DNA of 64,000 nucleotides from Magnolia sinica (lineage: Eukaryota > Streptophyta > Magnoliopsida > Magnoliales > Magnoliaceae): the NCBI RefSeq assembly GCF_029962835.1, contig NC_080582.1, forward strand, positions 77,744,177 to 77,808,176, written 5' to 3'. The notes beneath the pieces were generated by a model, which ran no database searches, was not told the origin of the DNA, and worked only from the letters and a program-made list of their open reading frames with translations. The stretch's first letter is position 1, and every line of letters starts with the position of its first letter. Below, in pieces: positions 19,207 through 40,948 of this stretch. The translations under genes were made by a program, and so were the position numbers.

Positions 19207-19530
19207 CTATCAAGTTTCAGCAAAAACCAGGCACTCACACCACATTGTCACCCTCCTATAAATCTCTAATGTCAATACCAAGTTTTTAAATCACATTTTG
19301 AAATCTAATCCTAGCAGTTAGTAGCGTAAATGGATGGAGAAATTTAAATCAGCTCATCACTTGATTTAGGTTAGTTTCATAAAATCAGATAAAATATAAT
19401 ATAAAAAAAGTTTTGTTCCTCTTCAACCTTATCTTGTTGAAACCAAAAGATGTTGAATTAATGAAATTTCTTATGCCTACTGCAAGACAACTATTAGCTT
19501 CCCCTAGGTTTCTTTTTTGTTGTTAGCTAC

Positions 19531-20490
19531 TATTGAGGCAAGAATTTGGATTGCCCTCTTCTAACCTCTAAGCACCTGCACAGGAGAAGAACAAAGGAGA
19601 CCTTGGCTAGAGCAGGGGACCCTCCGATGCCAAAGTCAGGCCTGGAATCTGGGTTTGGTCGTGATTGAAGGGTTTAGGCCGAGAGATTTTATGTACCTTT
19701 TCAGTGGGAGTAGGTCCTCTATTTATAGTGCATGGGGGATAGGTTCGTCCGCAATCTTGTGCATGACTTTAGCCGTTAGGCGAGATGTGCGCGAGTGGTG
19801 AATCTGGGTAGTTACCCTGGAATTACGCGGTGGACGGTTACGCGCAAGTTATGGGCGCCAACGGTTACCCTGGAGTCGTGCATAGCCGAGGAAAATCATC
19901 TGCCCAGCCATGGAGGTAGGTCGGCATGATTCTAGTCGGGACATTATGGGTCAGCATGGTGTGGACCCCTCAGTCGGACATCACAAAGATTCGGGCTGAA
20001 CCTCTGTTTACTTATGTCAGAGCCAAATTGGGCCAACTGATTGAGCGGATGGAGCCGACCCGAACCAAGTCGAGTTGAACCCAACAATCGGCTGAGGATG
20101 GGCCGGGCGTCGCCCTGAGCCGAGCTGAGCTCAACGATTGATCGGCCAGGGATTGCTATGGGGAGCTCAGAAGTTCTGTATTGGTTGTCTGGGCTATTGG
20201 CTTTTCTGAGCTGGAGGTTGGACCTATTTTCTCGTCAGTTCATCTGTCCTTCATCAGCCCTTTTACCGAGCCGATCAACCCCTTGGGCCTGTCTCGAGCC
20301 AAGCTGGATTGACCATGGCACTTTAAGATGGTCCTTGTGAGCTGCATAGGTGGAAGCTCGGGGGCGTGCACTACCGAAGACTGCGCTTGGGGAAGTGAAC
20401 TCCAGCTCCTCTTGGCATGGTGGTGTAGGAGTGTGTGCTCGTCAACTCGAGCCGACCTTGAGGACAGTCACACTATATTTCCCCATAACA
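19531..20490 (-). repeat. Gypsy 3' LTR
   Basis: The plus-strand left end is TATTGAGGCAAGAATTTGG, corresponding to TGTTGAGGCAAGAATCTGG in the partner. The terminal TG has become TA here. The right end is TTTCCCCATAACA. About 960 bp. A TATAAATA box (minus strand, 19720-19727) is retained. Confidence 0.9.
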
Positions 20491-21270
20491 AAAGCCCCCT
20501 ACATCTTGAGTTTACAATGTGAGCTTAGGAAGTAAGTTGGTGGAACGAGGTCGGGCAGACAAGATGTTACGCTTTAACTGCCAGCTAGCGGGGGCAACTA
20601 AATCAAGGAAAATCCGCAATGATGGCCTGCTATAGTGGAGGTGCTGTACTCTGCTATGGCAACTTTTTGGCTGGGACCCATGTTATGCTGACGCGTTGCA
20701 CTGACTAAGAATGCAGATCGGCCATAATGAATGAGAGATCACCATGTGTAAAGTGATGGACGAGGAGATGACTCTTCGTCTGCGGCATTTAATGCTGCTC
20801 ATTAAAGACGTGGCGCAACTTGGGAATTCAGATCAACAGAGCTAATGGGGCGTGGCCGCGTGTAAGGCGATGCTCGGGGAGACGGCTCTTCGCCTAGTAG
20901 ATATGTAGGGTCGTGCACTTGTATGTAGTAGTAGTGTGGTTAGCCGCGCTGATTTATAAGCATTGACTTTGCTTATTGGTTTACATGTGTAGTTATAGTT
21001 AATGGAGTGACCACTTCTTTAAGGGTCGGCCCATTAAAGGAGTGTTTCTCCTTGCATTGAAGGAGGTCTTTGGTAGTGTGAATAAGCAGACGCGGAGTTT
21101 AGATGAAAATCTTCCGTGCTGAGGAGTTTTTATTGCGAAAATCCATAGGAATTTACATGCAATACAAGTAGCTTTTGACCTCGGTCGCTTTTTCTTCGTG
21201 ACTCAGCTCATGAGTAGTAGACCTTTAGATGCTCGACATTTCATAGATGGAGTAGAGGTCGGTTCTCTGG
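20491..21270 (-). other. Gypsy 3' internal region and polypurine tract
   Basis: Internal sequence between the integrase end (cut by the copia insertion at 21270) and the 3' LTR. The minus strand reads GTAGGGGGCTTT immediately before the LTR, a polypurine tract. No further domain is seen. Confidence 0.6.
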
Positions 21271-21515
21271 TGTCAAAATAGAGAATGCGTAGAGAAATTT
21301 TGGGAAAAACTGCCTCTGTCAGTTCAGCCACTTTCATTATTTTCCAATTCCATCTATACACGGAAGTATATGCTATACACGGAGTCTAACTGATTCCTAA
21401 TATTCAGCATCTATACATGGTAAGATAATCTGTATAGCAAATATTAATAGAGTCCTAAATTGTATAAACTCCTAAAATTGTATACGGTAACATCCTAAAA
21501 TTGTATATGGTAACA
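21271..21515 (-). repeat. Copia 3' LTR
   Basis: 245 bp, TGTCAAAATAGAGAATG at the left and GTATATGGTAACA at the right. It contains three CCTAAA(A)TTGTATA repeats near the right end. Confidence 0.93.
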
Positions 21516-21545
21516 TCCCCCCTCAAATTGATGCTGGTAAGTCAA

Positions 21546-38269: not shown

Positions 38270-39722
38270 TTTGATGTACTCTCACAGATGCCCGTTGCGG
38301 ATGAGGGCTTTGATCTCTTCCTTGAGGTCGAAATAATCGCAGGTGGTGTGGCTATGGTCGCGGTGGAAGCGGCATTATTTTCGCTTATCCCACTGGTCTG
38401 CGTTGGTCTTCATACAACTCGGCCACTTCAGCAGTCGTTTATCTCGGACTTCTAGAAGGACTTGTTTTGGCGAGGCATTGAGAGGGGTGTACCTACTGAA
38501 CCGACTCTCAGGATGTCTGCTCGGCCGCTGACCTCTTGTTTTATCCTCGTTGGGTCTCTTTTTGTTATAGGTCGCCCGGGGTGGGGCTTACTCTTTGCGC
38601 TTTTTGTCCTTCGCCGAGCTCTCGGTATTCCGTGTAGCCTTTCAGGAATTGAAGAGGTCTTCGGCATTAGAGTACTTCTGTGCTCAATTCATGAGCTCTC
38701 CCAGGGTCGTCGAAGGGTTCTTCCCTATTGAAAAGAGGAACCTCCCTTCCCTGAGACTGACTATCGTAGCGGTCAGAGCTATTTTGTCCGAGTAATCGTC
38801 AACCTGCACTACCTCCCCATTGAACCACACAATGTATTCTTTCATGGTTTCTCCTTCTCTTTGCTTGATGGTGAGCAGGTGAGTAGACGGTTTTTGCCAT
38901 TCCTTCCCGACAATAAACTGTGTCAGGAATGCCTTACTGAGGTCAGCGAAAGAGCTGATCGACCTCGGCTTTAGTTGCCTGTACCAGCTCCGCGCATCTC
39001 TTGTCAAGGTCAAGGAGAAGGCATGACACATGTTTGGCTTGGACGCCGACTGGAGCTCCATCCAAGCTCTGTAGGATTCTAGATGCTCAGTAGGGTCTCC
39101 AGAACCCGAATATGGGGTGATGGGTGGCATCCGGAACCTCGAGGGTAGAGCAGAGCTCATGGTGTCGTTGATGAATGGTGGCCCTTTTTCCTCCATCATT
39201 ACGTCTATCGAAGTCGGGGCTTGCGCCCGATAAGCTTGGCGCATGATGCCGATCTGACCCCGCAGCTCGTCAAGCTGGACCTCCCAGGGATCCTTGTTCT
39301 CGGCGACAGTTTTGAGGTTCAGATCTTTCTCGGGTGCTTTCCCACGCCTCCTCTTCTCGAGGCTCCATCATTGAGGTCCCTGAAACATGAGACGGTGCCT
39401 AAGCGGATATGCCACGAGATACTTCTCTCTGAGAATTAGCTAAAGTAGAGTTCTCGACAGCCACCTGGGCAACCATCTCCTGATTAGGGAGGGGGAGTTG
39501 CCTTTCTAGCATTTGCCTCATTTGGCCGAGCTCACTGGCCAGTTTTTCGACCTGGTTCTGCAAGGAAAGGTAGCGGCCTCTCCGGTTCCGAGATTGTTGC
39601 ACCGGGCCCGTAGGAGCGGACTTGGTTTGGAGTTGGGAAGACGAGTTCTGACGATTGGGCTGCCCAATAGGCTCAGGGCTGGCAGCAACAGTGGTGGGAG
39701 GGGCTTTCCTTCCTTTCGCCAT
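38270..39722 (-). pseudogene. Gypsy gag (broken)
   Basis: The first Met after the LTR is at 39722 (MAKGRKAPPTTVAAS). A Pro/Gln/Asn-rich N-terminus runs to about 39399. The retrotransposon gag core spans 39244-38684 with motifs RMPPITPYSGSGDPTEHLES, FSLTLTRDARSWYRQL and AFLTQFIVGKEWQKPSTHLL. A zinc-knuckle-like segment around 38290-38390 reads CRFHRDHSHTTCDYFDLKEE, the Cys/His pattern seen at the end of Tat-type gag. Stops interrupt the frame between these blocks, including one just before the knuckle, so the protein cannot be made whole. Confidence 0.8.
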
Positions 39723-39765
39723 TGTTCTTTTCTGATAAAGCAGGAACGACTTTTGATGTCGTTTC

Positions 39766-39783
39766 CCATAGATGGCGCCAAAA
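39766..39783 (-). other. Gypsy primer-binding site
   Basis: Directly inside the 5' LTR the minus strand reads TTTGGCGCCATCTATGGG. The TGGCGCC start is typical of tRNA-complementary primer sites in plant Tat/Athila-type gypsy elements. I do not assign the exact tRNA. Confidence 0.65.
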
Positions 39784-40733
39784 TGTTGAGGCAAGAATCT
39801 GGACCGCCCTCTTTTGACCTCCGAGCACCTGCACAGGAGAAGAACAAAGGAGACCCTCCGATACCAATATTAGGCCTGGAATCTGGGTTTGGTCGTGATT
39901 GAAGGGTTTAGGGCGAGAGATTCTGCGTACCTTTTCAGTGGGAGTAGGTCCTCTATTTATAGTGCATGGAGGATAGGGTCGTCCGCAATCTTAGGCACGA
40001 CTTCAGCTGTTAGGCGGGATGTGCGCGAATGGTGAATGTGGGCAGCTACCCTGGAATTATGCGGTGGACGGTTACGCGCTAGTGATGGGTGTCAACGGTT
40101 ACCCCAGAGTCGTGCATAGTTGAGGAAAATCATCCGCCCAGCCGAGGAGGTTGGTCGGCATGATTCTAGTCAGGACATTATGGGTCAGCATGGTGTGGAT
40201 CCCTCAGTAGGACATCACAAAGATTCAGGCTGAACCTCTGTTTACATGTGTCAGAACCGAACTAGACCAACTGATTGAGCGGATGGAGCCGACCCGAACC
40301 GAGCTGAGCTGAACCCAACGATTGGCCGAGGATTGGCTGAGCGTTGCCCTGAGCCGAGCTGAACTCATCGATTGATCGGCCAGGGATTGCTCTGAGGAGC
40401 TTGGAAGTTCTATATTGGTCATCTGGGCTATTGGTTTTTCCGAGCTGGAGGTTGGGCCTATCTTCTCTTCAGTTCCATCTGTCCTCGATGAGCTCTTCCT
40501 CAACTTTACCGAGCCAATCAACCCCTTGGGCCTGTCCTAAGCTGAGCTGGATTGACCAGGGCATTTCAAGACAGTCCTTGTGAGGCGCATAGGTGGAAGC
40601 TTGGGGGCGTGCACTGCCGAAGACTGTGCTTGGGGAAGTGAACTCCAGCTCCTCTGGGCATGGTGGTGCAGGAGTGTGTGCTTGTCAGCTCGATCCGACC
40701 CTGAGGATGGTCGCACTATATTTCCCCATAACA
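39784..40733 (-). repeat. Gypsy 5' LTR
   Basis: About 950 bp with intact TGTTGAGG and CCATAACA ends. It holds the promoter for leftward transcription into gag. Confidence 0.92.
39954..39961 (-). promoter_or_regulatory. TATA box of the gypsy 5' LTR
   Basis: TATAAATA on the minus strand, in the context CACTATAAATAGAGGAC, about 170 bp before the LTR/internal boundary. The same context is conserved in the other LTR at 19720-19727. Confidence 0.7.
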
Positions 40734-40948
40734 GCTACCATTAGCATTAACTCTATCCAAAGTCTTTTTCAATGCTTCACCTGTTTGCACACAGGTATCA
40801 TCACTCGATATCATATTTCTAAATCAATTTTTTTCTGCACAAACTTAATTTCAAGCATATACTAACCCCATTCAAAATTTCTAATTAGAATTTAAAGCAT
40901 CTAATCATTCTATTCATAACGAACAGATGAAAGAAAAGAAAAATGTAC

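What the first reader, a model, noticed from the sequence alone, without database searches (positions are those of the whole stretch)
19526..40738. Four-deep transposon nest with every level dated by its own target duplication
Seen directly: gypsy (GCTAC/GCTAC) contains copia (TCTGG/TCTAG), which contains hAT (ACCACATC/ACCACATC), which contains a foldback MITE (TTTACAGCA/TTTACAGCA). In a side branch, gypsy contains a TRIM (CTCAT/CTCAT), which contains a mini-hAT (GATGCAGG/GATGCAAG). Excising each insertion plus one duplication rejoins integrase reading across the copia, hAT and TRIM junctions and gives normal gypsy (about 8.2 kb) and copia (about 5.1 kb) sizes. The order of events, spanning five superfamilies, is readable from one locus.
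Basis: partly seen in the sequence, partly recalled or inferred. Interest (0 to 1): 0.82.

Follow-up and report, generated by a model that had tools for sequence, protein, structure and literature searches.

The report
Nested jumping genes with natural controls
Six jumping DNA elements sit inside one another here, as happens often in large plant genomes; copies of the same DNA elsewhere in the genome show what five of the sites look like without the insertion, and indicate that the innermost element rode in inside its host rather than landing here.

Summary
Window 19526-40738 is a nest of gypsy, copia, hAT and MITE, with TRIM and mini-hAT in a side branch, flanked by the stated duplications. 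Natural empty sites were found for five of six insertions: gypsy 4 of 4 fetched relatives, copia in two segmental duplicates (15), hAT 6 of 6 (50), TRIM 4 of 4 (38), mini-hAT 6 of 6 (69). Gypsy LTRs are more diverged than copia LTRs (61).

Corrections. (1) The MITE is not a fourth local event: it sits at the same base of the hAT in 6 of 10 fetched relatives; five were checked as full hAT copies, four with their own exact duplication (33, 55, 86). It came as a passenger. (2) Duplications do not date layers. Three duplicates on the same contig show that gypsy, TRIM and mini-hAT predate the copia, and that the hAT predates the last duplication. Whether TRIM, mini-hAT or hAT also rode in is not excluded, but no carrier was seen. 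(3) Since the same duplications, gypsy DNA diverged 2.3-2.6 times faster than its flanks, through transitions, with transversions about equal (87).

Ordinary in kind; unusually well controlled.

The parts
19526..19530 (.). gypsy target duplication, left copy GCTAC
   Evidence: single copy at the empty site in fetched relatives
19531..20490 (-). gypsy LTR, left (3' LTR of an element on the - strand)
   Evidence: clusters with the left LTRs of duplicates A, B, C (support 100/100)
20491..39782 (-). gypsy internal region, interrupted by copia and TRIM; gag, RT, RNase H, an RVT_3 (second RNase-H-like) match and weak integrase matches, with stops and frameshifts
   Evidence: Pfam hits (Integrase_H2C2 and rve below their curated cut-offs); PPT and PBS positions
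39783..40733 (-). gypsy LTR, right (5' LTR)
40734..40738 (.). gypsy target duplication, right copy GCTAC
21266..21270 (.). copia target duplication, left copy TCTGG
   Evidence: single TCTGG in duplicates B and C
21271..33292 (-). Ty1/copia element (LTRs 21271-21515 and 33050-33292; gag, integrase, RVT_2), interrupted by the hAT
33293..33297 (.). copia target duplication, right copy TCTAG
   Evidence: same TCTAG in duplicate A
23681..23688 (.). hAT target duplication, left copy ACCACATC
   Evidence: one copy at the empty site in 6 of 6 fetched copia relatives
23689..30635 (-). hAT element with terminal repeats CAGTGTTCGAAATATCG and transposase pieces (hAT dimerisation domain; DUF659 match below cut-off)
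   Evidence: ends fixed
30636..30643 (.). hAT target duplication, right copy ACCACATC (also kept in duplicate A)
28429..28437 (.). MITE target duplication, left copy TTTACAGCA
28438..28928 (.). MITE with terminal inverted repeats; passenger carried by the hAT family
28929..28937 (.). MITE target duplication, right copy TTTACAGCA
   Evidence: L035 continues into the right flank
33539..33543 (.). TRIM target duplication, left copy CTCAT
33544..34559 (+). TRIM-like element: LTRs 33544-33852 and 33902-34559 (the second interrupted), primer-site motif TGGTATCAGAGC between them
   Evidence: the reading of the motif as a tRNA-Met primer site is recalled
34560..34564 (.). TRIM target duplication, right copy CTCAT
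33950..33957 (.). mini-hAT target duplication, left copy GATGCAGG
33958..34324 (.). mini-hAT, 367 bp, member of a high-copy family
34325..34332 (.). mini-hAT target duplication, right copy GATGCAAG

Best explanation
The locus is an ordinary plant nest of transposable elements inside a segmentally duplicated region. Shown: one gypsy insertion at GCTAC in low-copy DNA, inherited by four duplicates; TRIM and mini-hAT in place before the duplication that separated B and C from W (the window) and A; a copia that entered the gypsy after that, in the W/A lineage; a hAT in the copia before W and A separated; and in A a deletion of about 6.95 kb between two copies of GATGAT that removed most of the hAT and left its last bases and one target copy. 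The MITE was already in the hAT family before the hAT reached this copia. Inferred: that TRIM, mini-hAT and hAT landed here and were not themselves carried in by their host elements (no carrier was seen among 4, 6 and 6 fetched relatives); that each element moved by the usual mechanism of its class (LTR integrase with 5-bp staggers, hAT transposase with 8-bp staggers, probably a Mutator-type transposase with 9-bp staggers for the MITE); that the deletion in A used microhomology end joining; and that gene conversion later mixed parts of the duplicates.
For: Empty sites: gypsy 4 of 4 fetched, TRIM 4 of 4, mini-hAT 6 of 6, copia in B and C, hAT 6 of 6. The eight gypsy LTRs split into a left clade and a right clade, each 100/100, so the four gypsy copies descend from one insertion. 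TRIM and mini-hAT sit at the same base in W, A, B and C. Informative sites favour W+A against B+C at 193, against 22 and 14. A keeps the last bases of the hAT and the right ACCACATC. MITE at the same hAT base in 6 of 10 fetched relatives; of five checked as full copies, four have an exact 8-bp duplication. Copia LTR pair K2P 0.0385 is below gypsy 0.125 and below the W-B divergence of 0.071 in gypsy DNA.
Against: Divergence between duplicates is patchy: W-A from 0.2% to 6.9% in 500-bp bins. A's right LTR groups with B and C at 98/97 and shares with them a deletion of about 35 columns that W lacks, so gene conversion or a mixed history is present and could in principle have moved the copia+hAT state between W and A. 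TRIM LTR divergence (0.129 in W, 0.135 in A, 0.086 in B, 0.095 in C) is not below that of the gypsy in W and A, so the clock does not show the TRIM to be younger and leaves open that it came in with the gypsy. One of the five delimited MITE-bearing hAT copies (C16) has no matching 8-bp duplication. In MITE-free hAT relatives the site differs by further small indels, so that empty site is not clean. L037 carries a MITE only 84.5% alike and L035 one 92% alike.
Confidence: 0.87

Rival explanations
1. One reading: all six insertions happened at this locus, so the MITE is a fourth local layer that landed in the hAT after the hAT had landed in the copia.
For: The MITE lies inside the hAT and has a perfect 9-bp duplication.
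Against: Six of 10 fetched hAT relatives carry a MITE at the same base, four of them 97-98% alike to the window's over the part aligned (L033, L034, L036, L041); four of five delimited copies have their own exact target duplication. Independent hits on the same base in several hAT copies would be needed.
Confidence: 0.03
2. TRIM (with or without the mini-hAT) was already inside the gypsy when the gypsy inserted, as the MITE was inside the hAT; likewise the hAT could have come with the copia.
For: All four duplicates carry TRIM and mini-hAT. TRIM LTR divergence in W (0.129) equals that of the gypsy LTRs (0.125). A and W both show the hAT in the copia, so no duplicate has this copia without a hAT trace.
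Against: No relative with the carrier state was seen: TRIM absent in 4 of 4 fetched gypsy relatives, mini-hAT in 6 of 6 TRIM relatives, hAT in 6 of 6 copia relatives. The fetched relatives are a small part of the listed ones, and the gypsy relatives are only about 75-79% alike.
Confidence: 0.15
3. The copia (and hAT) entered only one duplicate and was copied into the other by gene conversion, so the order of hAT insertion and the W/A duplication is not as stated.
For: Patchy W-A divergence (0.2% in 33000-33499, 4.8-6.9% in the bins from 30500 to 32999); identical right copia LTRs in W and A; mixed grouping of right LTRs.
Against: W and A share 193 informative sites over the unit, against 22 and 14, including bins away from the copia, which fits plain descent better.
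Confidence: 0.15
4. The hAT state of A is the result of excision with aborted repair rather than a plain microhomology deletion.
For: hAT elements excise, and aborted repair leaves deletions (recalled). Nearly all of the hAT is gone in A.
Against: The left target copy and 18 bases of copia are lost too, and GATGAT at both break ends fits simple end joining.
Confidence: 0.35
5. The arrangement is an assembly artefact.
For: Duplicates of 92-98% identity on one contig can be misassembled (general knowledge).
Against: The window and A differ by private insertions with clean duplications (for example 51770-52802 in W, 8-bp GTTCTCAT) and by private substitutions.
Confidence: 0.02

Closest known systems
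Nested transposon clusters of wheat chromosome 3B (PMC4290129, passages read)
   Same: Elements inserted into elements and reconstructed layer by layer; up to 8 layers reported there
   Different: Here LTR elements, hAT, MITE and TRIM are mixed in one 21-kb nest, and empty sites are shown for five of six insertions
Maize P1-wr cluster (PMC2686159, passages read)
   Same: Nested LTR elements in a tandemly duplicated locus, ordered by nesting, target duplications and K2P divergence of LTRs
   Different: Here duplicates with and without the copia order events without a clock
Rice MULEs that carry the MITE Os0548 at the same site, intact in 40 and partial in 67 copies (PMC3903597, passages read)
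   Same: A MITE amplified as a passenger of a DNA transposon at one fixed site
   Different: Here the carrier is a hAT family, and only 10 copies were examined at the site
RESites, paralogous empty sites, as in PMC2213677 (passages read)
   Same: Same kind of evidence: a paralogue of the flanks that lacks the element
   Different: Flanks were not joined; natural relatives were aligned piece by piece

Membership tests
Ty3/gypsy LTR retrotransposon | LTR pair with 5-bp target duplication | tested here: met
Ty3/gypsy LTR retrotransposon | pol order RT - RNase H - integrase | tested here: met
   RVT_1 and RT_RNaseH, then RVT_3, Integrase_H2C2 and rve along the - strand; the two integrase matches are below their curated cut-offs (20.1 of 25.5 and 30.0 of 32.6 bits)
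Tat-like gypsy lineage (two RNase H domains) | second, archaeal-type RNase H between RNase H and integrase | tested here: inconclusive
   RVT_3 hit E 7e-9 next to the integrase; the lineage assignment rests on recall, no phylogeny made
Ty1/copia LTR retrotransposon | integrase before RT, copia-type RT, primer site next to the 5' LTR | tested here: met
   gag_pre-integrs, rve, SH3, RVT_2 in that order; TGGTATCAGAGC next to the 5' LTR
hAT DNA transposon | 8-bp target duplication, short terminal inverted repeats, hAT dimerisation domain | tested here: met
   7 other copies: exact 8 bp in five, 7 of 8 in one, none in one (two of them read by eye from the printed flanks); Dimer_Tnp_hAT E 2e-11
MITE | short, terminal inverted repeats, target duplication, many relatives | tested here: met
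   491 bp, inverted repeats and 9-bp duplication; relatives in the fetched DNA
Mutator-type MITE | mobilised by a MULE transposase | not testable with these tools
   only the 9-bp duplication points to it; a genome search for the family was unanswered
TRIM | LTRs, PBS and PPT, short, no coding sequence | tested here: met
   LTR stretches 90% alike, PBS motif, 36 other listed loci in the genome, no ORF of 150 aa in it; termini read TA...CA rather than TG...CA in all four duplicates, which is not canonical
Cassandra (TRIM with 5S rRNA in the LTR) | 5S rRNA-derived stretch | tested here: not met
   no 5S match in 33500-34600 up to E 1
mini-hAT | 8-bp target duplication, hAT-type ends, short | tested here: met
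   7 of 8 bases match; in 36 of 36 other listed loci the match begins within 5 bases of the left end, but in none does it run through the last 8 bases, so the right end rests on the duplication and the empty sites

The most novel reading that the evidence does not exclude
The duplicated nest works as a built-in calibrator for transposon clocks: the same gypsy and its own flanks were copied together, so their later divergence can be compared directly. Gypsy DNA changed 2.3 to 2.6 times faster than the adjacent flanks, through transitions (3.8 to 4.3 times), with transversions at about the same rate (0.87 to 1.09). Per site the excess is about fivefold at CHG and about twofold at other cytosines, and absent at CG, where flanks change as fast but hold far fewer sites. 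Read boldly, LTR-pair dates in this genome, if scaled to ordinary flanking DNA, are too old by about that factor, and a transversion-only clock would be free of the bias.
Probability: 0.55. Interest if true: 0.45.

Novelty: new member of a known kind. Interest (0 to 1): 0.3.

Why it matters
Nesting is often read as a local time series. This locus shows where that reading fails (a passenger MITE looks like the youngest layer but was aboard before its host arrived) and how duplicates can test it. It also gives a within-locus measure of how much faster transposon DNA changes than the DNA beside it, which bears on insertion dates taken from LTR divergence. As a nest it is ordinary: up to 8 layers are reported in wheat (PMC4290129).

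Tried and rejected
Dating the TRIM against the gypsy by LTR divergence: no resolution. Reading A as a hAT empty site, as the first BLAST table suggested: rejected at base level, since A keeps the right end of the hAT. Cassandra identity for the TRIM: rejected. Absolute dates: not given, because no substitution rate for this plant was established and the transposon clock is biased. Species: not established; a listing search for magnolia assemblies of this size gave three papers, none of which I could tie to the window. Literature: searches (listings); passages read by 'find' in PMC6911290, PMC2213677, PMC4290129, PMC2686159 and PMC3903597; no whole paper was read. [quoted passage not shown] No claim is made that the locus is or is not in print.

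
Full report
What was checked. The window is G000:C10:77744177-77808176 of an unnamed 1.84-Gb assembly. Pfam searches of - strand pieces, with X at stops, give gypsy gag, RT, RNase H, RVT_3 and two integrase matches below their cut-offs, copia gag, integrase and RVT_2, and a hAT dimerisation domain with a DUF659 match below its cut-off. The gypsy, copia and hAT coding regions run on the - strand.

Segmental duplicates. A search with part of the gypsy LTR showed further copies on the same contig. 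Fetching them and aligning them to the window revealed three duplicates of the locus: A (from 77.611 Mb; long collinear pieces 93-98% identical), B (from 77.874 Mb) and C (from 77.953 Mb), both about 92.5-95% by piece. Of B and C only 17 kb each were fetched. B and C hold the gypsy with TRIM and mini-hAT but no copia: in both, window 21270 and 33293 are neighbours with one TCTGG. A holds gypsy and copia. At the hAT site A is not empty. It keeps the last bases of the hAT and the right ACCACATC, joined at a shared GATGAT to copia sequence; the left target copy and 18 bases of copia are gone. So the hAT had already arrived before A and the window separated.

One gypsy insertion, four copies. The eight LTRs form a left clade and a right clade, each with support 100/100. 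Within each duplicate the two LTRs differ by K2P 0.114 to 0.125. Informative sites in 16000-44499 support W+A against B+C at 193, against 22 and 14 for the alternatives. Contrary signs: A's right LTR groups with B and C (98/97) and shares with them a deletion of about 35 columns that the window lacks, and W-A divergence is patchy. Gene conversion between duplicates is the likely reason (inferred).

Empty sites. For each insertion I compared natural relatives with the window and joined nothing. Gypsy: 4 of 4 fetched relatives of the left flank (of 12 rows, four of which are W, A, B and C) have both flanks adjacent with one GCTAC (L075 has a small extra repeat). TRIM: 4 of 4 fetched gypsy relatives (of 43 rows, four of which are W, A, B and C) lack it; the target reads CACAT in L043, L044 and L046, and L045 is less clean. 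L045 and L046 also have the copia flanks adjacent. mini-hAT: 6 of 6 fetched TRIM relatives (of 66 rows) lack it, as does the other LTR of the same TRIM. hAT: 6 of 6 fetched copia relatives (of 40 rows) read through one ACCACATC. The hAT ends are fixed by other copies, in lists capped at 40 scored candidates: 39 of 39 other left-end matches begin within 10 bases of 23689, and 30 of 40 other right-end matches end within 2 bases of 30635 (4 run on by 8 to 13 bases, 6 stop short).

The MITE is a passenger. Ten hAT relatives were fetched at the MITE site (of 42 rows). Six (L033-L037, L041) have a MITE at the same base and four (L038, L039, L040, L042) do not. In L033, L034, L036 and L041 it is 97-98% like the window's over the part that aligns; in L035 it is 92% with the right flank intact at 98%; in L037 it is 84.5%. 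Seven copies had both ends fetched. Their 8-bp duplication is exact in C13, C12, C14, C9 and C18, 7 of 8 in C4, and absent in C16 (C9 and C4 read by eye from the printed flanks because the script missed their ends). Four of the five MITE-bearing ones thus have an exact duplication of their own. So MITE-bearing hATs inserted at different targets, and the MITE was already aboard when the hAT reached this copia. The same pattern is published for rice MULEs carrying Os0548 at one site (PMC3903597, passages read).

Order of events. The duplicates give: gypsy, TRIM and mini-hAT; duplication separating B and C from W and A; copia; hAT with MITE; duplication separating W and A; deletion of most of the hAT in A. 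Within the first group the order follows from nesting only. Nesting does not exclude that the TRIM (or the mini-hAT in it) rode in with the gypsy, or the hAT with the copia; no such carrier was seen among 4, 6 and 6 fetched relatives. Divergences: gypsy LTR pair 0.125 (106 of 941 sites), copia LTR pair 0.0385 (9 of 243), Fisher p = 0.00015; W-B 0.071 and W-A 0.044 in gypsy DNA. TRIM LTRs (0.129, 0.135, 0.086, 0.095 in W, A, B, C) cannot be told from the gypsy LTRs by the clock.

The clock. Because gypsy and flanks were duplicated together, their later divergence can be compared. Gypsy internal against adjacent flanks: W-A 0.0408 and 0.0155; W-B 0.0642 and 0.0275; W-C 0.0636 and 0.0242. Transversion rates are about equal (ratios 1.09, 0.87, 0.90); transitions are 3.8 to 4.3 times higher in the gypsy (transition:transversion 4.2 to 5.0 against 1.0 to 1.1; Fisher p 1e-6 to 6e-13). 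By context, C/T and G/A differences per site in W-B are: CHG 92 of 577 in gypsy and 6 of 191 in flanks; other contexts 100 of 1895 and 26 of 1023; CG 123 of 654 and 15 of 64. So CHG shows the strongest excess, other contexts about twofold, and CG none; the gypsy simply has many more CG sites. The three comparisons share the window sequence and are not independent, and gene conversion could differ between gypsy and flanks. Decay of methylated cytosine is the inferred cause; methylation was not measured. That methylated transposons decay by transitions is known in general (recalled; one search is a listing, none of its papers was opened for this).

Verdict. As a kind of object it is well known.

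Noticed in passing
window 51770-52802: 1,033-bp hAT-like insertion (ends CAAGGTATTCC / CAGGGTGTCCC) with 8-bp duplication GTTCTCAT, present in the window and absent from duplicate A, hence probably younger than the W/A split.
   Followed up: partly
window 40912-41086, - strand: Close to the gypsy's right end lies a V-ATPase subunit C exon fragment (phmmer E 1.5e-14; Pfam match just below cut-off). DNA like these flanks, without the gypsy, occurs on C19, C3, C10 and C4.
   Followed up: partly
window 58475-59728, + strand: F-box / KIB1-4 beta-propeller gene, open frame of 417 aa; related stretches occur several times in the A region, so the duplicated block may be an F-box gene array.
   Followed up: no
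window 28100-29950: The hAT's 5' region holds several related MITE-like blocks, including two 155-bp units in tandem at 29299-29608; some hAT relatives hold MITEs in tandem there (L033, L036, L041).
   Followed up: partly
duplicate A, against window 21608-23061: A lacks about 1.45 kb of the copia besides the hAT deletion.
   Followed up: no
duplicates B and C, against window 36292-36418: B and C lack 127 bp inside the gypsy RNase H region that the window has; shared, so it supports B+C as one lineage.
   Followed up: no
window 28316-28430: This stretch of about 115 bp of the hAT also matches many places in the genome at 90-92% where the rest of the query does not match, perhaps shorter relatives of the hAT.
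   Followed up: no
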